A stretch of DNA of 64,000 bases, from the NCBI GenBank assembly GCA_963576785.1, contig OY756142.1:2604001-2668000 (forward strand), in the 5' to 3' direction. The DNA comes from Chlorophyllum brunneum (Eukaryota > Basidiomycota > Agaricomycetes > Agaricales > Agaricaceae). Position numbers and translations under genes: made by a program. Shown here piece by piece: positions 1-27,055 of the stretch. The notes under the pieces were generated by a model, which was given only the letters and a program-made list of their open reading frames with translations, ran no database searches and had not been told where the DNA came from. The stretch's first letter is position 1. The number at the start of each line of letters is the position of its first letter.

Positions 1-1158
1 GGGTACTGGCCACCTCGCTCACTTGCACTCACTGGGTTACCAGTGGTGGCAGCCTTTCTATTAATCCAATGGAGTTGTAGTCCCATATAGGGTTTGCATG
101 GTGGTTTTAACCCCTGCTGCAGCTCAAGTCCGGCTAGCATCTCCAGGCTGGGTTATCCTGGCTGACGACAGACATCCGGGCCTACCCCTAATCGTGCTTG
201 CATGTCGGTGGGGAGCGTGCTGAAAAAAGCCACCCTGTCACACCCAAAAGGGACCGAAAGGATAAGGGATGGTAATAGGGGGTATGGAGGTGAAAACAAG
301 CTGACCAAAAGGACAGGCCACCCCCCACCAGTGTTGCCATGCCTTTGGGAACCCCTCTGGGGATAGTGCCTGGTCGTTAGTAGGGATATGCCAAACTCCA
401 GGACACCAGGTGGGTGCAGGTTGACTCGGAGAAACTTGGGTTGATTGGTGCTTGTTCCACGGATTGCTTAGTAACCTGTTCCGTGGGTTGCTTATGTGAT
501 CCAATGTGAACACCACCCTAGTAGCGCCCCCTGTGAGACGGAGATCCCCACCAGTATTAGCATATGGATCTATGCCCAAAGACAAGTTACCTCCTCTGGG
601 GGTAGGGCATAGCAAAAGCATCTACGAGGGAACAGAAGCTAGTCCAGGGGTCACGCCTTGGAGGTATGCCTTCATGGCCTCTGCCTGCCCAACTAGTGGA
701 CTGTAGCAGGCCATTTACTAGGAGCATGCTGAAAAAAGCCACCCAGTTACCAAGAAGGAGCAGCCTGGCTCAAGAGGTCTAGATCCTCTGTCAATGGGTC
801 TCCGTCAACAACGGAGTGTACCCGTTTAAGTTGATACCACATAAGTAGTCTGGATTTGGGGTGGCGATATACACAGTCATGTGGTGAGATCCTGTCTGTG
901 CACCATATAGGAAGGATGCCTCAAGCAAACGGTGGGTTGGTCCTCAGGGATACCATGCTCTCTCAGTAGTGGGGTGTCCGCCCAAGCTAAAGGCTTTACC
1001 TCTTAGGAGGGAGGGGCAAAAAGTTCCCGCAACATGGCCAGATGCGACACCAATATGGGAGCCTGGGAACATGCTGGGCGTTCTACGGGCACATATCATC
1101 TCAAGACCCCCATCTCTGGGCTGCTAGGAGTTTACCTGCAAGGGACTCTGTGTACGGG
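1..1158 (+). repeat. R module, copy 1 (left part cut by window edge), fused to a LINE
   Basis: This stretch is repeated at about 5832-6992 with only scattered substitutions. It has no convincing ORF on either strand. A short motif (GTGCTGAAAAAAGCCACCC-like) occurs twice inside it, near 218 and near 725, and at the same places in copy 2. It ends at the motif TGTACGGG, after which LINE A sequence starts directly. In copy 2 the same R end is joined to a different LINE position. A fixed R 3' end with a variable LINE breakpoint is what template switching from a LINE RNA onto the 3' end of another RNA would produce (inference). Confidence 0.7.
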
Positions 1159-3861
1159 CCCTGCAAGGCTATCCAGTACAATGGAGAGCTATGTCATGCA
1201 CTTCCAGATCTCTGGGATGCACTCCACAATACCTACAACTCGGCCTTGGGCCGAGCAGTGGATATTTCGGTTCTTGATCTGCTACCCAGTCTTCCAGCTA
1301 GGGAGTGGGTCCATTTCTCAGCCTTAGAGCTGATGGATGCCCTGAGCGCATGCTTGGGTGTGTCCGCCCCAGGGCCAGACCACGTAATGTGGACCCACCT
1401 CAAAGAGATCGCTGAGGACCCTGATGTCCTTCGGTTATTCATCAGGATAGCTAATGCCTGCATGCATATGGGTTATTGGCCATCCCATTTCAAGGAGAGC
1501 TTGTCAGTTATCATACCAAAGCTGGGCAAGCCGTCCTACTCAATGCCCAAGGTATTCAGACCCATTGTGCCCCTGAACACCTTTGGTAAACTTATCGAGA
1601 AGATGATCTCGAATTGCCTCCAGTTTGATTCAGTCAAACATGGAGTTTTTCATCCAAATCAGCTCAGTGGTATCCGTCAGCAGTCCACTGATGATGCTGG
1701 GATGCTCCTAACCCACATTGTTGGTGTGGGGTGGGCCAAGGGCCTCAAGACTAGCGTTGTCGCTTTTGACATCACTTTTTTTTTTCCTTTGCTCAACCAC
1801 TCTATGTTGTTAGTGATTTTGCAGAAGCAAGGATTTGACCCCTGTGTGGGTAGATTCTTTGCCTCTTATTTAGTCGGCCACTCTACGCAGTATGCGTGAG
1901 GAGACCATAAGTCTGATCTCAGACAGGCGGACGTTGGGGTAGGTCAGGGCTCCTTGCTCTCTCCTGTCCTCTCTGGTCTTTATCTTGCCCCCTTCATGAA
2001 ACTCTATGACAGGGAGGCAATCATGCTTGGGAGTACCCTTCTCTCATACGTCGACGATAGCCTTGCTACTGCCCAGGCAAAAACCTGGGAACCTAATCTG
2101 GTATGCCTTAAGCAGGCATACCAGATTATATATTGCCTGACTACTTCGTTTGGGCTTGCCATTGAGCACAACAAGTCCGAAGTGTTTCACTTCTCCCATA
2201 AACAGGGAGATGACAACCCACCGCTGGATTTGGGGTATGCTCCCCATACCGGCAATACTCCATTATGCCCTAAGACCCATTGGAGGTACTTGGGTTTTTT
2301 TTTCAATCGTGCTCTTACTTTTAAAGAGCACGTTTGGCATTACACTACTAAGTCTTTGTCCATGGTCAAGGCCATGGGCATGCTTGGTAACTTGTTGCAA
2401 GGCCTTCTTCCTAATCAGAAGAGGACTCTTTATTGCTTATGTGTAGTACCTATCGCTACGTATGGGTTTCATTTGTGGTTTTATGAGGGTGCCTGGAACA
2501 AGGCCCTTCTGAGACAACTTAACACTATGCAGTGCAAAGCTGCACTGTGGATCACTGGTGCATTCCGCACCAGCCCTACCAGAGGCCTTGGCTGGCCTTA
2601 TCCCCATCCATCTCTATCTCAAGAAACTGGCTACCCATGCTGTCCACAGGATAGCCACCCTTTCTGAGAACCACCCTGTTTGCTCTGTTATAGGGCGTCA
2701 GTATATAGGGGATTGTGTTCCACACCCCAGGTTGATTGCTCTCATGACCCCTGCCTAGGCGGGTAAGGTCAAGGGGCCGGTCACAGAGGCAAACTCTCAT
2801 TTGCCAGACTTAACAGAGACATTTGAGCCATTTGTGCTCGAAGCATTGCCAGGTTCTCGTTTCCTGGACCACTACACGTGGCCTAGGTGACTTATAAAGT
2901 ATATAATGCCTCACTCGGTGGAAACCCTGCAGGTCATCAAGTGGATTTGCTCAATGATACTCTTTGTGAGTATTGTGAGGACAGACAGGTGGTCTATGCA
3001 GCAACGGACACAAGTCTGCCACTGGTTGGAGACTACCAGGCGGTTTTGGCTGCCTATGTTTATAGGGGGACACGTTTGCTTCAGGCTATGCGTCACCCAG
3101 CTGGCAAGGTTACAGCCCCAGATGCTGAACTTTTCGCCATTTGTATGGCTTTGGGAACTGCTGCAGCAGTCTCTGAGGTGGCACATATTGCGGTCTTTAC
3201 AGACTTGATTGGTTCTGCCAAGCGAGCTCTTGACTCATCCATACATTCTGGCCAGGAACACTCCCTGGCTGTTTGTCGCCTCTTGTTAGAGTGGTTCAGG
3301 GATCATCCTGACCATTCACTCATGTTCTGGTCCATTCCGTCTTTGGTGAAATGGTCCATCCATCAGGATGTGCATGTATTTGCCACTGACCTTCAGGTCA
3401 CCGCTGGACGCCGTCCAGCGACATCTATCAATGTGCTGTATAAAGTCAACGTAGCAACTGTTCAGAAGGCCTGGAAGGTTACCTTCCAGGACTCCTCTTA
3501 TCGAGGTTCAAACTTCCTTGTTCTCAAGGATAGCAAGAACAAGGTTCTACAGCCAACGTACCTCCATGGAGGGTCTTAGCTTCCTTCCTTTCCCTCTCAG
3601 TCCATTGTGACGAGGGCGAACCATGCCATTCTCGGGCACGCACCAACCAGCGAGTACCACTCCTGGTTCCATCCTCTAGAGCCTATTGGCTGCGAGTGTG
3701 GGGCTCCTTTGGAGACCTGCACTCATATCTTGTGCTCTTGTCCATTGTACAAGAGATGTTGTGGCCTGCCAGTCTCTATTGACCAGCTGGTATCTTTTCT
3801 TGGGCGTAACCCTGCTGTATTTGCGTTCAAGTCCAACAGACTGCCTGCGGGAGTTGGATAA
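1159..3861 (+). pseudogene. LINE A ORF2 remnant (reverse transcriptase - RNase H)
   Basis: Reverse transcriptase motifs are readable from about 1300, including the intact catalytic YVDD at 2047-2058. The RT region runs to about 2660. An RNase H-like domain follows at 2887-3330 (TDTSL, AELFAI and FTDLIGSAK blocks carrying the acidic residues). A C-terminal zinc-binding tail (CECG...CTHILCSC) lies at 3607-3861. Damage: an in-frame TGA near 1897 where a sister copy has a Trp codon, a frame change before 1954, another near 2586, a TAG near 2756 and one near 3577. The protein cannot be made whole from this copy. The domain order matches ORF2 of fungal Tad-like LINEs. Confidence 0.8.
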
Positions 3862-4163
3862 TGCAACACGGCCCCTGCTAGCTCCCCACGTCTCTGGCGT
3901 GTGTAGGAGTTAATTGCAAATTGACGCATACTCTTCCTAGGGAGGGGAGGCTAGGGGTCACTTGCATATTTGGTCTAGAATTTGTGTGTTCATGCATGTT
4001 TCTGCGACTGTTCACCCAGACTGCCTGTCAGCAGTCTAGTTCAGCCAGGGGAGAGCCCATCTTCATATACTACCCTCTTTGTAGCCTACATGTCATAGTA
4101 GATACAGGTGGACTGCAATTGCACACCACCTTAAACACATTGATTTAAAAAAAGAAAAAAAAA
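1159..4163 (+). mobile_element. LINE A, 5'-truncated non-LTR retrotransposon with poly(A) tail
   Basis: The element holds reverse transcriptase, RNase H and a C-terminal Cys/His zinc-binding segment in that order, then a 3' UTR ending in TTGATTT plus an interrupted A tract (about 4145-4163). This layout fits the Tad/I-type group of fungal LINEs (family knowledge; subgroup not proven). ORF1 and the endonuclease are missing because the copy is truncated at its junction with module R. The same 3' UTR recurs at 7500-7744 on the plus strand and at 10817-11100 on the minus strand. The copy is dead: its reading frame is broken several times. Confidence 0.85.
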
Positions 4164-5241
4164 ACATACTCTTCAGAGAAGTGGGCCATTCATGGTACCA
4201 TACACCAGTACTGCACCAAACTTCAGGTTGCTGCGGGTTCCTGTCCACAAACCTCCCTTGACTCCCTTTGTCAAAAGGTCGTCAAATCCTACCAGGATGC
4301 CTGGATCACTTGATTCCAGGATCCTACTTACTCGGGTAGCTAGTTTATGGCTCTCGAAGGATGTAACAGTAAGCCCCTCCAGCCCACTTACCTCCATGGA
4401 GGTTTGTGGCTGCCCTCTGCTGCAGCAGAGTCCAACTTGCTGTCTGCCCGCATATGTAGAGTTATACTCAACCATGCACCTATTGGGGCCTATAGGTCTC
4501 AGTTCTTCCAGGATGAACCATTCTGGTGTCCATGGGGGGCTCCTTTCGAGTCTCATGTGCATATTCTTACCAACTGCAGTCGGTTTGATTCCTCTAGGGG
4601 GTACCCAGCTATGCCAGGTGCCCTCGTCAAGTTCTTGAAGGCGAACCCTCTGGCGTTTGCCTTCCCATCCGTTCCTCAGGGAATTGGATAACTGGCTTAG
4701 GGTAGGTGGGTTATTGTCCAGTACTGGAGAATTCTGGTGGAAGTCCGGCGAAGACCTTCAGAGTTTTATGAACAGAGTTGTTCCCTTCAGTAACTAGGTG
4801 TGGTGAAGATGCTGATAGCCACACAAATAGTGCAGCCTATTACTCTGGCAAGGGTGACCGTGGCCAGGGGGATGACTCCTAGTAAGAAGGACTCCGGAGG
4901 CTAGTAGCAGGACCGATAACTGGGGACTTCTAGTGCTGGGCATTTACAGTGAACTGACACTTACTGACTGGGCCCAGTTTGTGGACTGGGTTGCTGGTTG
5001 GGGGACCTCTCTACCCACTTGCCTCCTCTGGCGTCCACTCCCCTCGCCCTTCAGGCTTGGGAGTAGGATGCAATTCTGTCTACTGTTGGTTTCAGGCAAC
5101 AGTACATCTGCTTGGTGGGGCATGTCCACCACTTCTCTGTAGATACCCACTAGTTTACTTGTTTGTACTCTGGCCACGGGCTGTGTTCGAGCACCACATA
5201 ATAAATTGGCCTTAGGCCATGATTTAAAAAAAAAAAAAAAA
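4164..5241 (+). mobile_element. LINE C 3' end, 5'-truncated, with poly(A) tail
   Basis: This copy starts immediately after the poly(A) of LINE A and ends in GGCCATGATTT plus about 18 A residues. The same sequence, reverse-complemented, runs from about 8697 to 9770. It retains the C-terminal zinc-binding part of ORF2 (FWCPWGAPFESHVHILTNC around 4520-4580, ending near 4690) and a 3' UTR of about 530 bp unlike that of LINE A. The upstream ORF2 was lost by truncation. I see no clear target-site duplication around it. Confidence 0.8.
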
Positions 5242-5561
5242 AAGTGGACTTGCTCAATAATACTCTTTATGAGTATCATGAGGACAGACAGGTGGTCTAC
5301 GCAGCGATGGATGCAAGTCTGCCACTGATTGGAGACTACCAGGTGGTTTTGGCTGCCCACATTTACAGGGGGATGTGTTTGCTTTGTGCATTGCATCACC
5401 CAGCTGGCAAAGTTACAGCTCCAGATGCTGAACTTTTTGCCATCCATATGACCTTGGGGACTGCTATAGCAATTTCTGAGGCTGTACATATTGTGGTCTT
5501 TACAGACTCGATTGGCTCTGCCAAGTGAGCTCTTGATCTATCCATGTACTCTGGCCAGGGC
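5242..5561 (+). mobile_element. Internal LINE A fragment (RNase H part)
   Basis: The fragment matches 2942-3257 of the first LINE A copy, covering the RNase H domain (DASLPLIGDYQVV, PDAELFAIHM and FTDSIGSAK). It begins directly at the end of the LINE C poly(A) tract and stops at the start of module R copy 2. It has no tail of its own. It may be part of the target into which neighbouring copies inserted, or a product of end-to-end template jumping; the two cannot be separated by eye. Confidence 0.75.
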
Positions 5562-6992
5562 AAATCACTCCTTGACTTGTTACCACCACTATCACTTTTT
5601 CCACTTCCTTTCCCCATTACACCATTTGTCTCCTGGGCTCTCTCTCATGGGCCTGGGTCTTTTCTGAGCCTTTGCTAGCTGTAGGGGGGTGGTCTGTGTG
5701 GCAACGTTACTTGGTCAATGGACGGTGCGCCCTTGGTAAAGGCAATTAAAGGTGGGTATATCCCCACCATTCATCTGACTGACACCTATACACACAGATT
5801 GACAGGGTAGCCCCTTGGTAAAGGGTCTTAAAGGCTGGAGTACTGGCCACCTTGCTCACTTGCGCTCACTGGGTCGCCAGTGGTGGGAGCTCTTCTATCA
5901 ATCCAATGGAGTTGTAGTCCCGTACAGGGTCTGCATAGCAGTTTTAACCCCTGCTGCAGCTCAAGTCCAGCTAGCTTCTCGAGGCTGGGTTATCCTGGCT
6001 GATGACGGATGTCCGGGCCTACCCCTAATTGTGCTTGCACATCGGTGGGGAGCGTGCTGAAAAAAGCCACCCTGTCACACCCAAAAGGCACCAAAAGGAT
6101 AAGGGATGGTAACAGAGGGTATGGAGGTGAAAACAAGCCGACCGAAAGGACAGGCCACCTCCCACCAGTGTTGCCATGCCTTTGGGAACCCCTCTAGGGG
6201 TAGCGCCTGGTCATTAGTAGGGATACGCCAAACTCCAGAATACCAGGCAGGTGTGGGTTGACATGGGGAAACTCGAGTTGATTGGCGCTTGTTCCGTGGA
6301 TTGCTTAGTAACCCATTCCACAGATTGCTTATGTGATCCAATGTGAACACCACCCTAGTAGCGCCCCCTGCGAGACGGAGATCCCCACCAGTATTAGCAT
6401 ATGGATCTGTGCCCAAAGACAAGTTACCTCCTCTAGGGGTAGGGCATAGCAAAAGCATCTGCGAGGGAATGGAAGCTAGTCCAGGGGTTGTGCCTTGGAG
6501 GTACACCTTTGTAGCCTCTGCTTGCCCAACTAGTGGACCGTAGTGGGCCGTTTACTGGGAGCGTGCTAAAAAAAGCCACCCAGTTACTGAGAAGGAGCGG
6601 CCTGGCTCAAGAGGTCTAGATCCTCCGTCAATGGGTCTCTGTCAACAACGGAGTGTACCCATTTAAGTTGATACCATATAAGTAGTTTGGATTTGGGGTG
6701 GTAATGTGTGCAGTCATGCGGTAAGATCCCGTCTGTGCACCGTATAGGAAGGATGCCTCAAGTGAATGGTAGGCCAGTCCTCAGGGATATGTGCTCTCTC
6801 AGTAGTGGGATGTCCACCCAAGCTAAAGGCTTTACCTCTTAGGAGGGAGGAGCAAAGTCCCCGCAACATGGCCGGATGCGGCACTAATATAGGAGCCTGG
6901 GAACATGCTGGGCATTCTACGGACACATATTGTCTCAAGACCCCCGTCTCTGGGCCGCTGGGAGTTTGCCTGCAAGGGACTCTATGTACGGG
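5562..6992 (+). repeat. R module, copy 2, fused to the LINE A 3' end
   Basis: This is the more complete copy of the non-coding module also seen at 1-1158. It extends about 270 bp further 5' than the window shows for copy 1. Near its 5' end two related segments (CCCTTGGTAAAGG... around 5728 and 5811) suggest an internal duplication. The GTGCTGAAAAAAGCCACCC-like motif appears near 6055 and 6565. It ends at TGTACGGG, exactly as copy 1 does, but the LINE then begins about 2.2 kb further 3' within LINE A. No long ORF stands out, and I do not recognise the sequence. Confidence 0.7.
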
Positions 6993-7744
6993 TCAGGTCA
7001 CTGCTGGACACCATCCAGCAATGTCTATTGATTCACTGCATAAGATCAATGTGGCAACTGTTCAGAAGGCCTGGACTCCTCTTATCACAGTTCAAACTTC
7101 TTTGTTCTCAAGGATAGTAAGAACAAAGTCCTACAGCCGATGTACCTCCATGGAGGTTCTTGGCTTCCTTCTTTTCCCTCTCAGTCCATTGCGACAAGAG
7201 CAAACCATGCCATTCTCGGACATGCACCAACCGGCAAGTACTGCTCCCGGTTTCATCCTCTAGAGCCTTTTGGCTGCGAGTATGGGGCTCCTTTGGAGAC
7301 CCATACTCATATCTTGTGCTCTTGTCCTTTGTACAAGAGACGTCGTGGCCTGCCGGTCTCCCTTGACCAGCTGGTAGTTTTCCTTAAGCGCAATCCTTTG
7401 GCGTTTGCATTTAGGTCCAACACACCACTTGTGGGAGTTGGATAATGTGGCACGACCCCTGCTAGCTTCCCATGTTTCTGGCATGTGTAGAAGTTAATTG
7501 CAAATTGACACATACTCTCCCTAGGGAGGGGAGGCTAGGGGTCGCTCATCATTCTGGTCAAGGATTTGCACGCCCGTGCGTGTTTCCACGACTATTCACC
7601 CAGACCACCTGTCGGCAGTCTAGTTCGGCCAGGGGAGAGCCCATCTTTGAATACCATACCTTTGTAGCCTACATGTCACAGTAGATACAGGTGGACTGCA
7701 ATCATGCACCACCTTAAACATGTTGATTTAAAAAAAAAAAAAAA
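6993..7744 (+). mobile_element. LINE A 3' end joined to R module, with poly(A) tail
   Basis: This segment corresponds to LINE A from about 3393 onward. It covers the end of RNase H, the C-terminal zinc-binding segment (FGCEYGAPLETHTHILCSC, ending near 7445) and the 3' UTR (TTGATTT then about 14 A). It is the 3' half of the R-LINE composite 5562-7744. Several bases near 7070 are missing relative to the first copy, breaking the frame. Confidence 0.8.
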
Positions 7745-8676: not shown

Positions 8677-10768
8677 TTTTTTTTTTTTTTTTTTTTTTAA
8701 ATCATGGCCTAAGGCCAATTTATTATGTGGTACTCAAACACAGCCCACGGCTGGAGTACAAACAAGTAAACTAGTGGGTATCTATGGAGAAGTGGTGGAT
8801 ATGCCCCACCAAGCAGACATACTGTTGCCCAAAACCAATAGTAGACAGAATTGCATCCTACTCCCAAGCCCGAAGGGTGAGGGGAGTGGATGCCAGAGGA
8901 GGCAAGCGGGTAGGGAGGTCCCCCAACCAGCAGCCCAGTCCACAGACCAGGCCCGGTCAGTAAGTGTCAGTTCACCGTAAATGCCCAGTACTAGAAGTCC
9001 CCAGTTACTGGTCCTGCTACTCGCCCCCAGAGTCCTTCTTACTAGGAGTCATCCCTCCGGCCATGGTCACTCTTGCCAGAGTAATAGGCTGCACCATTTG
9101 TGTAGCTATCAGCATCTTCACCACACCTAGTTACCGAAGAGGACAACTCCATTCATAAAACTCTGAAGGTCTTCACCAGACTTCTACCAGAATTCTCCGG
9201 CGCTGGACAATAACCCACCTACCCTAAGCCAGTTATCCAATTCCCTGAGGAACGGATGAGAAAGCAAACGCCTGAGGGTTCGCTTTCAAGAACTTGACAA
9301 GAGCATCTGGTATGGCAGGGTACTCCCTAGAGGAGTCAAACCGACTGCAGTTGGTAAGAATATGCACATGAGACTTGAAGGGAGCCCCACATGGACACCA
9401 GAATGGTTCATCCTGGAAGAACCGAGACCTATAGGCCCCGATAGGTGCATGGTTGAGTATAACTCTACACATGCAGGCAGACAGCGAGTTGGACTCTGCT
9501 GCAGCAGAGGGCAGCCACAAACCTCCATGGAGGTAAGTGGGCTGGAGGGGCTTACCGTTACACCCTTCGAGAGCCATAAACTGGCTACCCAAGTAAGTAG
9601 GATCCTGGAATTGAGTGATCCAGGCATCCTGGCAGGATTTGACAACCTTTTGACGAAGGGAGTCAAGGGAGGTTTGCAGATAGGAACTTGCAGTGACCTG
9701 AAGTTCAGTGCAGTACTGGTGTACAGTACCATGATTGGCCTACTTCTCCGAAGAGTATGTGTGCCAGATGTGAAGGGAGCATTCAGGGTGACCCCCAAAC
9801 CACTCCATAAGGGTGTTGCACACGGCAAGCAAGTGAGCCTGACCAGAGTGAACAGAAGGGTCTACTGCTCTCTTAGCTGAGCCAAGGGAGTCAGTAAACA
9901 AAACAATGGAGTCACAATCAGGAAGGCTGGTAGCCTTTCCAATCACAATCTGGATAGCGTACAGCTCCGCATTAGGAGCTGTCACTCGACTGGCTGCATG
10001 TCTTGTCTGGAAGACATGCTGGCCTGACTGGTAAATATGGGCAGCAGAGACTGCCTGGAATTCCCCCTGCAGCAGTAGACTAGTGTCCGTGGCTACAGTG
10101 AAAACCCAAGGATTGGCATTAGCACGTTCCAAAGTACTGTTCAGATGCCTTATATGCACAGCTCTCTCATCACGAGAATGGGGAGAGTTGTGGAAGGAGA
10201 CCTGGGCCGCAAAGTGGTCCAGGAGACTGAGCAAGTCCACTTGACGACCTGCAGGGTTTCCACCAAGTGAGGCATCGTACATTTTGAAAGTCACCTGGGC
10301 CACATAGCAGTCCAGGAGACGAGAACCTGGCAATGCTTTGAGCACAAATGGCTCAAATGTCTCCGTTAAGTCTGGCAAACAAGAGTTTGCCTCTGTGACC
10401 AGCCCCTTGACCTTGACTGCCTGGGCGGGGGTCATGAGAGTGATTGATCTGGGGTGTGGAACACATTCCCCTATATACTGATGCCCCATGATAGAGCGAA
10501 CAGGGTGGTTCTCAGAGAGGGTGGCTACCCTGTGGATGGCACGGGTAGCCAGTTTCTTGAGATAGAGGTGGATGGGAATAAGACCAGCTAAGGCTTCAGC
10601 TCCTCCAGTAGGGCTGGTGTGGAATGTGCCAGTAATCCACAATGCAGCTTTACGCTGCATAGTGTTAAGTTGTTTCAGAAGGGCTTTGTTATGGGCACCT
10701 TCATAAAACCACAATCAAAACCCATACATAGCAATAGGCACTACACACAAGTGGTAAAGAGTCCTTTT
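8677..10768 (-). mobile_element. LINE C, minus strand, 5'-truncated
   Basis: A run of about 22 T (the poly(A) tail on the minus strand) is followed by the LINE C 3' UTR, the C-terminal zinc-binding segment (about 9233-9592) and a long open frame (9740-10714). That frame holds the end of the RT/thumb region and an RNase H domain (VATDTSLLLQGEF, APNAELYAIQIV, FTDSLGSAKRAVD). Upstream RT is missing: the copy breaks at 10768, where the T tract of another insertion begins. The 10230-10714 part is very close to LINE A, whereas everything 3' of it differs, so A and C look like mosaics of one another. Confidence 0.8.
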
Positions 10769-22221: not shown

Positions 22222-22301
22222 CACTCAACTCACCTTGCAAGAGAGGTGCCACTATTCGTAGCTAGGCTTGGAATAATAGCCTCCGACCAGGACAACAGTA
22301 T

Positions 22302-23573
22302 ATGAGCAGCAGTAGCTCATCGAGAACACCGAGAAGACAGAGAGCTCCGAGACCAACAGACATCCAGGGTTCACCCGTAGCAACAGGATCCAAACGATCA
22401 ACAGAACCAGAAATCCCTGAAGGCCTTAAACGGCAGAAATCCGAACACAGCGTAGACGAGACCACAGCTCTATTTGAAACCAAATTCGACACAGAAGTCG
22501 CCGAGAACACATCCGATATAGATATCGCCGAAACCTACGAGGAAGAATCCGAACACAGCACAGACGAAGAACCAGCTCCGGTTGAAGAAGAAATCGACAC
22601 AGCTTTATTCGAAGCCGAATTCGACACAGAAGTCGCCGACGCCACAGACGATATAGAAATCGCAGAGACTTATGAAAACGAACACAGCGAATCAGAGTTA
22701 GAACCAGAGATGACAGACGAAGTCAACGTACCAAAAAACCTAGCCCCGGAACCAGGATATTTCAATGGGGATAGGACCAAATTTGACGATTGGTGGAGAG
22801 CCATATCCTTATGGCTAATGTTCAACAAGATAGACGAAGAAGAACAGAAAATAGTAGCCATTCTGGCAAGGATGAAAGGAGGACTAGCAGGTCCTTACGC
22901 CAACACGCAACTACAAGCCATCCAGAATAAGAAAACACCGGCTTGGGAGGACTTTACGAAAGAAGTAGAAGCCACATTCTCCTTGGGGAATAGGAAAGCC
23001 ATAGCAGAAGGAGAAATAGAGACGTTCAAACAGGGAAAGAAGAACACAGCAGACTTCTTAATCGAATTCGAAGCATTGAGAGCCCAAGCAGGAACAGACG
23101 ACACACACGCGATATTCCTTCTCAAGCGCCACACCCGAGCAGACATTATTCGAACCATAGTAGGTTACCCGACAACCTCCGTCCCAACAACATACAGCAA
23201 ATGGAAAACCACGATCCTCGCAGTAGGACAAGGTTACGAAGCAACGGACATCACTAGAGGAGATGTCAAAACCACCACCGGAGTTATCTATGGGGGAAGA
23301 GGACAACCCATGGAGATAGGACGACAAAGGGCAGACACCGATCAGACTGGAAAACCGAGGTGCTACAATTGTAACCTCTATGGGCATATTGCCAAATACT
23401 GCAGGAAGAAGACAAAAGTCACGTACACCAAAATAACGTGTTACAATTGCGGTAAACAAGGCCACATCTCGAAGAACTGCCGGGCACCCAAGAAAGCCCA
23501 TATCAGAGAAGTCAACGAGGATGATGAACAAGAAATAGAGGAGAAAGAGGATTTTGTCGAAGGCTCCGAGTAG
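22302..23573 (+). CDS. Gag protein of the gypsy element
   Basis: 423 aa, starting at an ATG followed by a serine run. The N-terminal third is acidic with repeated motifs (ALFETKFDTEVAE and ALFEAEFDTEVAD), which looks like an internal duplication. The middle (about 140-290) resembles the helical capsid region of Ty3/gypsy Gag (FDDWWRAISLWLMFN, then TADFLIEFEALRAQAG). Two CCHC zinc knuckles follow: CYNCNLYGHIAKYC (about 352-365) and CYNCGKQGHISKNC (about 380-393); these bind RNA during packaging. The last codons carry the slippery site for entry into pol. The stop is TAG at 23571-23573. Confidence 0.92.
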   Translation: MSSSSSSRTPRRQRAPRPTDIQGSPVATGSKRSTEPEIPEGLKRQKSEHSVDETTALFETKFDTEVAENTSDIDIAETYEEESEHSTDEEPAPVEEEIDTALFEAEFDTEVADATDDIEIAETYENEHSESELEPEMTDEVNVPKNLAPEPGYFNGDRTKFDDWWRAISLWLMFNKIDEEEQKIVAILARMKGGLAGPYANTQLQAIQNKKTPAWEDFTKEVEATFSLGNRKAIAEGEIETFKQGKKNTADFLIEFEALRAQAGTDDTHAIFLLKRHTRADIIRTIVGYPTTSVPTTYSKWKTTILAVGQGYEATDITRGDVKTTTGVIYGGRGQPMEIGRQRADTDQTGKPRCYNCNLYGHIAKYCRKKTKVTYTKITCYNCGKQGHISKNCRAPKKAHIREVNEDDEQEIEEKEDFVEGSE

Positions 23574-23590
23574 GCGCAAACCCGCGAGCC
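23549..23590 (+). promoter_or_regulatory. -1 ribosomal frameshift site: slippery heptamer plus downstream stem
   Basis: The heptamer G GAT TTT (23549-23555) is in the correct phase for -1 slippage: gag reads GAT TTT. After a 6-nt spacer, GGCTC (23562-23566) can pair with GAGCC (23586-23590), with an inner GCG/CGC pairing (23574-23576 with 23583-23585). The pol frame is open from 23528 and overlaps the end of gag, as -1 frameshifting requires. GGAUUUU is a known slippery sequence in some plant RNA viruses (from memory). Confidence 0.7.
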
Positions 23591-26500
23591 AATAAACCTA
23601 GAGTTTCTATTTTATCCCACAATAGACGATATGTGATTCCCCAAAAACGAAACTCTACGCGCGAACTTCTCCTCGACTCAACAATCCAGACAAGAAAAGG
23701 ATGCAGACAAATCACAACCCTCGTAGACTCCGGATGCACCCACACGTGCATAGCACAACGAACAATAGACGAAGAACAGATCCCGACTAAACCTCTGGAA
23801 ACCCCAATCAGAGTGATCAATGCCGACAGCACAGAAAATAAAAAGGGAGAAATAACGGACAAGGCACAACTGGTATTAAACAACGGCAACCACACGGAAC
23901 AAATCGACGCTCTAGTAACACAATTGGAAAGCGCGGACTTATACTTGGGACACGATTGGCTGGTTAAACATAACCCGGAAATCGATTGGAACAATCATGT
24001 CATACGATTCACGAGATGTCCAGAAGATTGCAAAATATCACATAGTGACATACGGTTCAACGAGAAAATACGGACAGTCAAGGAACACATTGAAGAGAAA
24101 AAGGCAGATCGGACGAACGATGAAGATCTACCACCATACCTCCAACAGTACACCCATCTATTCAACAAAAAGAACTTTGATAATCTACCAGCACACACGG
24201 TATGGGACCACGAGATAAACCTGTCAGAAGATGCACCTCCGATACTGCAGTCCAAAGTTTACCCAATGACAATAACGGAAAAACAGGAACTACAAAAATT
24301 CCTCGATGAATACCTCGCCTCAGGACGTATCAGACCATCACAGTCCCCCTACGCCACCCCATGCTTCTTTATACCGAAAAAAGACGGAACAAAACGCCTG
24401 GTACAAGACTACAAGAAACTGAATGAACACACCATCAAAGATAAAACGCCACTACCACTTATAAGCGAGGTTCTAGACCGACTAAAGGACGCAAAAGTGT
24501 TTAATAAGCTCGACATCATTTGGGGATACAACAACGTCAGTATCAGAGAAGGAGACGAATGGAAGGCCGCGTTCGTAACAAACAATGGATTATTTGAACC
24601 TACGGTCATGTTCTTTGGAATGAGCAATTCACCGGCAACCTTCCAAAGAATGATGAACACGATATTCCGAGAACTATTACATGAAGGAACGCTTGTCAAC
24701 TACATGGACGATTTCGTCATTCCAGGAACCACACAAGAAGAACTCGAGGAAAGAACGACTCGGTTCTTAGACATTGCAGCCAAACACCAGCTCTACTTCA
24801 AACGATCAAAATGTATGTTCGACGCAAAAGAAATACCCATACTGGGCTTTGTGGTGGGACAGGGTAGCGTTAAAATGGAGGAAGAGAAGGTGAAAGCAGT
24901 AAGGGAATGGCCAACACCCAAATCTGTGAAAGATGTCGAAAAATTCCTCGGCTTCGCAAATTTCTACCGACGATTCATACAAGACTTCAGTAACATAGCG
25001 ACACCACTACATGAACTCAAAAAGAAAAACACACAATGGTCATGGTTAGAACGGCAACAGCAAGCATTTGAAGAAATCAAGAAGAAAATCACGAGCGAAC
25101 CAGTACTAGCGATGCCCCGAGATAAAGGACAATATAGAGTGGAAGTAGACGCATCAGGATACGGAGTAGGAGCAGTATTATCACAAGACCAGGATAACCA
25201 ATGGCACCCAATCGCCTTCCACTCAAGAACAATGACACCGGCAGAACGAAATTACCAAATCTACGACAAAGAATTATTGGCAATCCGAGAAGCAATCAAA
25301 ACTTGGAGACAATATCTACTCGACGCCGACAAACCATTCGAGATATGGACGGACCACAAGAACTTGGAATATTTTAGGAAACCGCAACAACTCACCGGGC
25401 AACAAGCGAGATGGCAACTGGAACTACAGGAATATCACTACACGTTAAAACACATACCCGGTAAAACAAACACAAAAGCAGATGTGTTATCAAGACTAGC
25501 GAAAACGGACACAACCAAAGACAACACAGATATCACGCTATTACCTGACCACTTATTCGACAACACTACCACCGAGATCAGACAGATGTGGGATATATCG
25601 GGAGAAGAAGACCTGAAACACCGACTACGAAAGGAGCAGAAGAGAGAAACACAGTGGTTAAGAGAAAAGGAGAAACGACCAGAGGAGATATGGGAAACTG
25701 ATGGATTACCCATCTTCGAAGGAAGAATATATGTACCACCAAACACCGAATTACGCCAAGAAATACTCCAACAACACCACGACAAAACGGACGTAGGACA
25801 CCCGGGACAACACAGAATGATCGAACTCCTCAAAAGGACATATTGGTGGCCACAAATGCGCAATGATGTTAAACGATACATCAAGGGATGTGACACATGT
25901 CAGCGAAACAAAATACTCCGAACACGACCCACCACACATCTCCACCCACTACCAATACCCAACGGACCATGGGAAGAGATATCAATTGACATGATAGGAC
26001 CACTGCCAGAATCGGAGGGATACGACGCGATACTTGTCATCGTTGATCGTTTCAGCAAAATGATCAGACTACGGGCAGTTAATACCACCCTATCATCTGA
26101 GGAGTTAGGAGATATATATCGGGACGACATATGGAGACAACATGGGATACCACGCAGGATCATCAGTGACAGAGGTCCACAATTCGCATCAAAATTCATG
26201 GCAGAACTTTGCAGAGCAACCGGCACCCAACGTAACCTATCCATGGCATACCATCCACAAACAGACGGTCAAACGGAGCGCATCAACCAAGAGGTTGAGA
26301 CCTACCTCAGGAATGTAATCAATCATGCACAGAACAACTGGAAGAAATGGCTTAGCACGGCAGAATTCCAGTATAACGATAAAACACATAGTGCCACAGG
26401 ACATTCACCGTTCCAGATAGTATACGGACGACACCCATGGAAAGGAGACATCTCAAACGAGATCAAGGCTCCAGCAATCACGGAAAGAATACAAGAACTA

Positions 26501-27055
26501 CAAGACATACGCCAAGAGACGATCAAGATGCTCCAACAAAACCAGGTACAGATGGAAAAGCGGAACAGCACAAAACCAGAACACGAGTACCAAGCAGGAG
26601 ACCAAATTTGGCTGGAAGCAGACAATATTAAGACAACAAGACCAACGAAAAAACTAGATCACAAGAGATACGGACCCTTTCGAGTAAAAGAAAAAATAGG
26701 AGAAACAAGCTACCGCCTGGAGCTACCTGAAACATGGGCGATACACGACGTGTTCAACAGCAGACTACTTTCCCCCTATCATAACCCCGAGTATGACAGC
26801 CAGCGCACTCCACCACCACCGATCCCCGAGATAGTCAATGATGAGGAACACTACGAAGTAGATGAAATCCGAGGACACCGCACAAAAGGGAAACGAAAAC
26901 AGTACCTAGTACACTGGAAAGGATATACGTCCGAAGAAGATACATGGGAAGACGAAACAAACTTAGACAGCGCCAAGGAAGCGGTACAAGAATTCATAAG
27001 CAAGATTTCGAGGACGAAACCTATAAAAAGGGGAGGTAAAAAGCAGCAATTATGA
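23555..27055 (+). CDS. Pol polyprotein of the gypsy element (PR-RT-RH-IN-chromodomain)
   Basis: Pol lies in the -1 frame relative to gag and is open from 23528 to the TGA at 27053-27055. No good ATG occurs near its start, so it is probably made as a Gag-Pol fusion through the heptamer at 23549; I set the start there. Domains: aspartic protease (LVDSGCTHT, about 23720), reverse transcriptase with catalytic YMDD (24701-24712), RNase H (VEVDASGYGVGAVLSQ, about 25141), and integrase with an HHCC zinc domain (about 25775-25910). The integrase D,D-35-E core follows (SIDMIGPLP, ISDRGPQF, NQEVETYLR; about 25980-26300), then a GPF module (KRYGPFRVKEKIG) and a C-terminal chromodomain (YLVHWKGYTSEEDTWED, about 26850-27000), which usually guides integration to chromatin. 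I see no internal stop. Confidence 0.93.
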   Translation, partial: CRRLRVGANPRANKPRVSILSHNRRYVIPQKRNSTRELLLDSTIQTRKGCRQITTLVDSGCTHTCIAQRTIDEEQIPTKPLETPIRVINADSTENKKGEITDKAQLVLNNGNHTEQIDALVTQLESADLYLGHDWLVKHNPEIDWNNHVIRFTRCPEDCKISHSDIRFNEKIRTVKEHIEEKKADRTNDEDLPPYLQQYTHLFNKKNFDNLPAHTVWDHEINLSEDAPPILQSKVYPMTITEKQELQKFLDEYLASGRIRPSQSPYATPCFFIPKKDGTKRLVQDYKKLNEHTIKDKTPLPLISEVLDRLKDAKVFNKLDIIWGYNNVSIREGDEWKAAFVTNNGLFEPTVMFFGMSNSPATFQRMMNTIFRELLHEGTLVNYMDDFVIPGTTQEELEERTTRFLDIAAKHQLYFKRSKCMFDAKEIPILGFVVGQGSVKMEEEKVKAVREWPTPKSVKDVEKFLGFANFYRRFIQDFSNIATPLHELKKKNTQWSWLERQQQAFEEIKKKITSEPVLAMPRDKGQYRVEVDASGYGVGAVLSQDQDNQWHPIAFHSRTMTPAERNYQIYDKELLAIREAIKTWRQYLLDADKPFEIWTDHKNLEYFRKPQQLTGQQARWQLELQEYHYTLKHIPGKTNTKADVLSRLAKTDTTKDNTDITLLPDHLFDNTTTEIRQMWDISGEEDLKHRLRKEQKRETQWLREKEKRPEEIWETDGLPIFEGRIYVPPNTELRQEILQQHHDKTDVGHPGQHRMIELLKRTYWWPQMRNDVKRYIKGCDTCQRNKILRTRPTTHLHPLPIPNGPWEEISIDMIGPLPESEGYDAILVIVDRFSKMIRLRAVNTTLSSEELGDIYRDDIWRQHGIPRRIISDRGPQFASKFMAELCRATGTQRNLSMAYHPQTDGQTERINQEVETYLRNVINHAQNNWKKWLSTAEFQYNDKTHSATGHSPFQIVYGRHPWKGDISNEIKAPAITERIQELQDIRQETIKMLQQNQVQMEKRNSTKPEHEYQAGDQIWLEADNIKTTRPTKKLDHKRYGPFRVKEKIGETSYRLELPETWAIHDVFNSRLLSPYHNPEYDSQRTPPPPIPEIVNDEEHYEVDEIRGHRTKGKRKQYLVHWKGYTSEEDTWEDETNLDSAKEAVQEFISKISRTKPIKRGGKKQQL

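What the first reader, a model, noticed from the sequence alone, without database searches (positions are those of the whole stretch)
1..7744. Two R-LINE composites sharing one R 3' end but different LINE breakpoints
R (up to 1.43 kb, non-coding) ends at TGTACGGG in both copies (1158 and 6992), but LINE A joins at positions about 2.2 kb apart. A constant foreign 3' end plus a variable LINE start is the hallmark of template switching from LINE RNA onto another RNA during target-primed reverse transcription. MINE elements of the rice blast fungus (a 'WEIRD' module fused to variable lengths of the LINE MGL) have this layout, as I recall. Here the R sequence is unfamiliar and may be a second such system in a basidiomycete.
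Basis: partly seen in the sequence, partly recalled or inferred. Interest (0 to 1): 0.8.

Follow-up and report, generated by a model that had tools for sequence, protein, structure and literature searches.

The report
RNA hitchhiker that targets LINE RNAs
A 1.4-kb non-coding RNA in this (probably fungal) genome is repeatedly fused, by its fixed 3' end, to LINE retrotransposons at many different points, and a short guide-like stretch inside it appears to choose the point of fusion, which suggests that it joins itself to LINE RNA much as a self-splicing intron would.

Summary
R is about 1,430 nt with fixed 5' and 3' ends. In 29 of the 30 best R hits the 3' end is intact and runs straight into LINE. 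Overall I found 77 distinct R|LINE junction sequences; 57 fall at 40 different starts in LINE A. Composites end in poly(A), and 7 of 13 testable ones have target-site duplications, so they entered as one unit. This is the MINE (WEIRD-MGL) layout. Plain template switching does not explain the junctions. LINE bases just before the break, never copied into the chimera, carry a motif that differs between R lineages of the same genome: YYU|Y or YUY|Y. A scan of R for columns that track the motif puts three of the five best in one 12-nt stretch. There one lineage lacks a single G, which shifts the expected pairing by one base, as the motif shifts. Best reading: R carries a guide that spans the break, its 3' G is joined to LINE RNA by intron-like partial reverse splicing, and the chimera is then retrotransposed. 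Catalysis is inferred; no group I/II core was recognised.

The parts
1..1158 (+). R copy 1 (lineage a), 3' part; its 5' end lies 274 nt upstream of the window at G000:C4:2603727
   Evidence: L001
286..290 (+). Guide-like stretch GGAGG of copy 1 (type 1); expected to pair with LINE bases +1 to -3 around the join
   Evidence: sequence
1159..4162 (+). 5'-truncated LINE A joined to R copy 1; parent sequence at the join is CTTCCA|CCCT (3 of 4 guide pairs)
5564..6992 (+). R copy 2 (lineage a), full length with both ends
   Evidence: L011
6123..6127 (+). Guide-like stretch GGAGG of copy 2 (type 1)
   Evidence: sequence (L011)
6993..7744 (+). 5'-truncated LINE A with poly(A) joined to R copy 2; parent sequence at the join is TGACCT|TCAG (4 of 4 guide pairs)

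Best explanation
R is a mobile, structured non-coding RNA that rides on LINEs. A 4- to 5-nt guide in a loop near R position 560 pairs across a short pyrimidine site in a LINE RNA. The 3'-terminal G of R is then joined to the LINE base just after the break and the 5' part of the LINE RNA is dropped, as in the partial reverse-splicing step of a group I or II intron. The R-LINE chimeric RNA, with its LINE 3' end and poly(A), is copied into the genome by the LINE machinery. R would later be freed from chimeric transcripts at the same joint, which would explain why no R without LINE was seen. Shown here: constant ends, variable LINE starts, insertion as a unit, lineage-specific motif upstream of the break, and association of that motif with the guide loop. 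Inferred: that the loop acts by pairing, that the joining is RNA-catalysed, and the release step.
For: 77 distinct junction sequences with R ending at the same G. LINE parent base before the break is G in 0 of 77, AG in 0 of 77, and the first LINE base is G in 0 of 77. Site motif by guide type over 45 unique guide-and-site pairs: type 1 (GGAGG), pairs at -3/-2/-1/0 in 24, 26, 19, 25 of 26; type 2 (GGAG, one G fewer), 19, 19, 19, 17 of 19. All four pair in 16 of 26 and 17 of 19 with the own guide, and in 6 of 26 and 5 of 19 with the other guide. 0 of 50,000 shuffles of guide type reach the observed sum; U at -2 is 8 of 26 against 19 of 19 (Fisher 1.1e-6). Lineage consensus scan: position 564 is the only place with the best possible score for both lineages; shuffled columns reach it in 5 of 300 (-3..0) and 0 of 300 (-3..+1). 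Unbiased association over 30 unambiguous copies: 5 columns with one error, three of them (557, 563, 568) in the guide loop; no column of the 3' tail is among these five. Of the copies with a mixed 3' end and guide, L094 and L089 follow the guide. Composites have poly(A); 7 of 13 have 12-15+ bp target-site duplications and L024/L028 carry exchanged halves. R has compensatory pair changes, some by transversion.
Against: No group I or II core found. Counting allowed pairs alone, plain G runs in R do as well as the guide (92 of 100). In a per-copy log-odds scan with 23 copies position 564 was first for -3..0 in 3 of 4 settings but fourth in one, and not first with +1 included in any of 4; permuted best scores reach the observed in 12 of 400. 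In two of five guide windows (-4..0, -5..+1) the null reached the score often (62 and 89 of 300). Guide type is largely confounded with lineage, and positions 431 and 743 associate as well as the guide columns. L100 has a type 1 guide but a CTC|C site. L012, L084 and L097 do not discriminate. Sites are more folded upstream than motif-matched controls (p = 0.001, 0.020, 0.021, 0.097 in four windows), which reverse-transcriptase pausing would also predict.
Confidence: 0.55

Rival explanations
1. Template switching during target-primed reverse transcription: the LINE reverse transcriptase stops on LINE RNA and jumps to the 3' end of a separate R RNA, perhaps placed nearby by R-LINE pairing.
For: This is the published explanation for MINE (PMC2104539). 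Full-length 5' RNA, truncated LINE, poly(A) and duplications fit. LINE RNA upstream of sites is more folded than motif-matched controls. Lineages a and b share hot regions of LINE.
Against: The motif lies in LINE bases that are not copied and differs with the R lineage. No microhomology: parent base -1 is G in 0 of 77. The break lies inside the inferred guide-target helix, not at its edge. No separate R gene was found in what I examined.
Confidence: 0.2
2. Guided or motif-specific cleavage of LINE RNA followed by ligation to the R 3' end by a cellular RNA ligase, as proposed for U6-L1 chimeras.
For: Gives RNA-level joining and one exact R end. RNA ligation is named as one route for U6-LINE-1 chimeras in PMC13174262 (passages seen).
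Against: Needs a second activity that cuts LINE RNA at sites set by R; the simplest holder of that specificity is R itself.
Confidence: 0.2
3. R is an ordinary 5' part of the LINE or is spliced to it by the spliceosome.
For: R is always 5' of LINE and in the same strand in the junctions examined.
Against: 40 LINE A starts; AG before the break in 0 of 77; the same R lineages are joined to LINE parts that do not map to LINE A, such as those matching window 4265-5243.
Confidence: 0.03

Closest known systems
MINE (WEIRD-MGL) chimeric retroelements of Magnaporthe (PMC2104539)
   Same: Full-length structured or unknown 1.1-kb non-coding RNA fused by its 3' end to variable starts of a LINE; target-site duplications; no solo copies found there; a motif (GCC*A/U) upstream of the break.
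   Different: R is 1.43 kb. Four R lineages occur in one genome with different motifs, which argues against the pausing explanation given for MINE. The relation of R to WEIRD in sequence was not tested, as no WEIRD sequence was available.
Group I / group II self-splicing introns (partial reverse splicing)
   Same: Works like: a guide that spans the junction, a terminal nucleotide of the RNA joined to the base after the target site.
   Different: No core recognised by Rfam models; the last base of the target is not always U; R ends in GGG.
U6-LINE-1 chimeras of mammals (PMC13174262)
   Same: Full-length non-coding RNA 5' of a truncated LINE, same strand, target-site duplications (passages).
   Different: Here hundreds of nt longer RNA, several lineages, and lineage-specific target motifs.

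Membership tests
MINE-like chimeric retroelement | Full-length copy of a non-coding RNA at the 5' end | tested here: met
   23 R copies full length in 30 loci; others are 5' truncated, e.g. L061, L093
MINE-like chimeric retroelement | 5'-truncated LINE at the 3' end with variable start | tested here: met
   40 distinct LINE A starts
MINE-like chimeric retroelement | Flanking target-site duplication of the whole chimera | tested here: met
   7 of 13 with own duplication, 2 with exchanged halves, 4 without
MINE-like chimeric retroelement | Sequence motif upstream of the LINE break | tested here: met
   motif differs from GCC*A/U
MINE-like chimeric retroelement | 5' RNA is WEIRD or a homologue | not testable with these tools
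   No WEIRD sequence and no fungal collection at hand
Group I intron | Conserved catalytic core | tested here: not met
   No RF00028 match at E up to 10
Group I intron | 3'-terminal G of the intron | tested here: met
   R ends in G at the junctions, with a few decayed to A (L017, L022)
Group II intron | Domain V and 3' end AY | tested here: not met
   No RF00029 or D1-D4 match; R ends in GGG
Spliceosomal trans-splicing product | AG before the acceptor break | tested here: not met
   0 of 77
Self-splicing-like RNA | Covalent joining catalysed by the RNA | not testable with these tools
   needs bench work

The most novel reading that the evidence does not exclude
R is a new class of mobile ribozyme: a non-coding RNA with no gene of its own that frees itself from chimeric transcripts, chooses new LINE RNAs by a 4- to 5-nt guide, splices itself onto them, and is spread by LINE retrotransposition. 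WEIRD of Magnaporthe would be a second member.
Probability: 0.42. Interest if true: 0.95.

Novelty: new variant of a known kind. Interest (0 to 1): 0.82.

Why it matters
Chimeric LINE insertions are usually put down to reverse-transcriptase template jumps. A guide inside the partner RNA would mean that the joining is chosen by that RNA and happens on RNA, would reopen the twenty-year-old MINE/WEIRD case, and would add a new way for a non-coding RNA to become mobile. The claim is directly testable with two synthetic RNAs in a tube.

Tried and rejected
Spliceosomal acceptor: rejected, AG before the break in 0 of 77. G microhomology between R end and LINE: rejected, parent base -1 is G in 0 of 77. 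R as a known RNA family: no match above gathering or with a plausible score in window 5500-7100 or in L006, L024, L027, L030. A TTAGGG-type telomerase RNA was considered only in thought. Guide search by counting allowed pairs: not informative, G runs score alike. Wider guide windows including -4 or -5 were weaker. Prediction for base +1 was not clear and is not claimed. L093 was first scored as a contrary case and then dropped, because its R covers only 930-1431 and has no guide; the recount without it, with L107 and L109 added, is. One scan of viral contigs with an R word found nothing. RPC1 search did not name the organism. Literature: searches turned up no paper that describes a guide or ribozyme behind LINE chimeras; only titles and abstract starts were seen except for PMC2104539 (parts 1 to 3 of 5 of the main text) and PMC13174262 (abstract and passages). 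The U6-L1 RNA ligation work itself was not read.

Full report
What is there. The window lies at G000:C4:2604001-2668000 in a genome of 38.9 Mb and 14 contigs. Its first 7.7 kb hold two composites, each R followed in the same strand by a 5'-truncated LINE. The LINE carries RVT_1 and Exo_endo_phos_2 domains. R has 44 hits in the genome, a lower bound because 40 of 172 candidates were scored. Its 5' end pattern has 67 hits and a core pattern near the 3' end has 68. On 11 of the 14 contigs the hits cluster in one stretch per contig, with single outliers such as C1:1.84 Mb.

Ends. In L001-L030, 23 R copies are complete, 1,418-1,434 nt, and start at (AT)CGCTCCTTGACTTG. The 3' end is intact in 29 of the 30 loci; L020 is broken by another insertion. 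Four lineages differ in the last 40 nt: a, b, c and d. Some other copies are 5' truncated (for instance L061, L093), as expected for LINE-made copies, and L095 and L099 have R cut short before the 3' end and then LINE.

Junctions. Over all loci 77 distinct junction sequences were collected (36 lineage a, 38 b including two d, 3 c), and two further c junctions later (L107, L109). 57 map to LINE A at 40 starts. Of the other 20, 19 match other LINE parts of the window; L097 matches none there but has four parents elsewhere. So in every intact junction examined R is followed by LINE; I did not follow all 5' end hits to their 3' ends, so a solo R is not excluded.

Insertion. For 13 composites both ends were in reach: 7 have a target-site duplication of 12-18 bp with at most one mismatch, 4 have none, and L024 and L028 carry each other's half, as after an inversion between them (the pairing is my reading of the printed flanks). 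L024 and L028 share the junction and 99.4% of R, so chimeras can be copied again as units.

Motif. For each junction I read the LINE bases before the break from other LINE copies that lack R there. In unique sites of lineage a: -3 C19/T4 of 27, -2 C21/T6, -1 T21, 0 Y25. Of lineage b: -3 C29/T4 of 34, -2 T33, -1 C20/T13, 0 Y29. At shared hot regions the two lineages break one or two bases apart, for instance GACTCCT|CTTATC (a) and GACTC|CTCTTATC (b).

Guide. A log-odds scan of the two lineage consensus sequences finds one place with the best possible score for both motifs, R position 561-564: GGAGGUGA in a, GGA-GUGA in b. With the G of GUGA opposite -3, type 1 predicts YYU|Y and type 2 YUY|Y. 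Shuffled columns reach the score in 5 of 300 for -3..0, 0 of 300 for -3..+1, 62, 10 and 89 of 300 for three wider windows. Read copy by copy (53 copies, 45 unique), the own guide pairs at all four positions in 16 of 26 and 17 of 19, the other guide in 6 and 5; no shuffle of 50,000 reaches the observed sum. An association scan that knows nothing of guides, over 30 copies with unambiguous sites out of 43 (45 aligned), gives five columns with a single error: 557, 563 and 568 in this loop, and 431 and 743 elsewhere. L094 (a-type tail, type 2 guide, CCTC|T) and L089 (b-like tail, type 1 guide, TCCT|T) follow the guide. L012, L084 and L097 are neutral; L100 disagrees. In lineages c and d, 6 of 7 sites fit type 1 fully (L089, L097, L098, L102, L107, L109; not L100), although 3 of those 6 (L097, L098, L107) would also fit type 2. 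The loop is closed by GGGGG/CCCCC in the predicted fold.

Limits of the guide claim. Because all sites are pyrimidine rich, simple pair counting cannot tell the guide from G runs, and a per-copy log-odds scan with 23 copies is only moderately in favour. Guide type and lineage are mostly confounded. What is firm is that the motif depends on the R lineage; that the loop is the cause is likely, not proven.

R as an RNA. Nine 300-column windows fold better than column shuffles, z from -1.6 to -8.3, with pair changes such as G-C to C-G at 348/397 and U-A to A-U at 1121/1129. Many other double changes may come from CpG decay, since 1,081 of 1,912 transitions (235 transversions) fall on consensus CpG. 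No Rfam family matches.

Comparison. PMC2104539 (parts 1-3 read) describes WEIRD-MGL chimeras with the same layout, no solo WEIRD and a GCC*A/U motif, explained by pausing. In its table the base before the break is C or T in all 18 rows, which a G-containing guide would also give; that is a prediction, not a test. PMC13174262 (passages) names RNA ligation and template switching for U6-LINE-1 chimeras. Two lineages with different motifs on the same LINE in one genome are hard to explain by pausing alone.

Mechanism. Reverse splicing of the R 3' G into LINE RNA explains the exact end, the motif in uncopied bases, its lineage dependence, the break inside the paired stretch, and the lack of solo R. 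Ligation after cleavage and guided template switching remain open.

Noticed in passing
G000 contigs 1, 2, 3, 4, 5, 6, 7, 9, 10, 11, 12 (positions): R-LINE composites cluster in one stretch of each of these contigs, which looks like centromeres; the window lies at the edge of such a cluster.
   Followed up: no
window 22266-27055: LTR retrotransposon genes with gag, protease, RT, RNase H, integrase and a C-terminal chromodomain, a chromovirus-like element beside the LINE cluster.
   Followed up: partly
L024 and L028 (C11 about 805-810 kb): Two composites with the same junction and 99.4% identical R carry each other's target-site duplication half, as if an inversion had occurred between them.
   Followed up: partly
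R in L006, 1387-1423/1469-1505 and 1711-1741/2221-2251: R holds internal repeats of 37 nt (78%) and 31 nt (90%), so part of it may have arisen by duplication.
   Followed up: no
L016 1408-1498: A tRNA-Leu-like gene on the minus strand sits exactly where R is broken near its 5' end; similar sequence in L017.
   Followed up: no
R copies in L001-L030: Strong transition decay, over half at CpG (1,081 of 1,912), as expected from cytosine methylation.
   Followed up: no
window 4164-5243 and 8681-9760: Inverted pair of a second LINE 3' end, 92% complementary.
   Followed up: no
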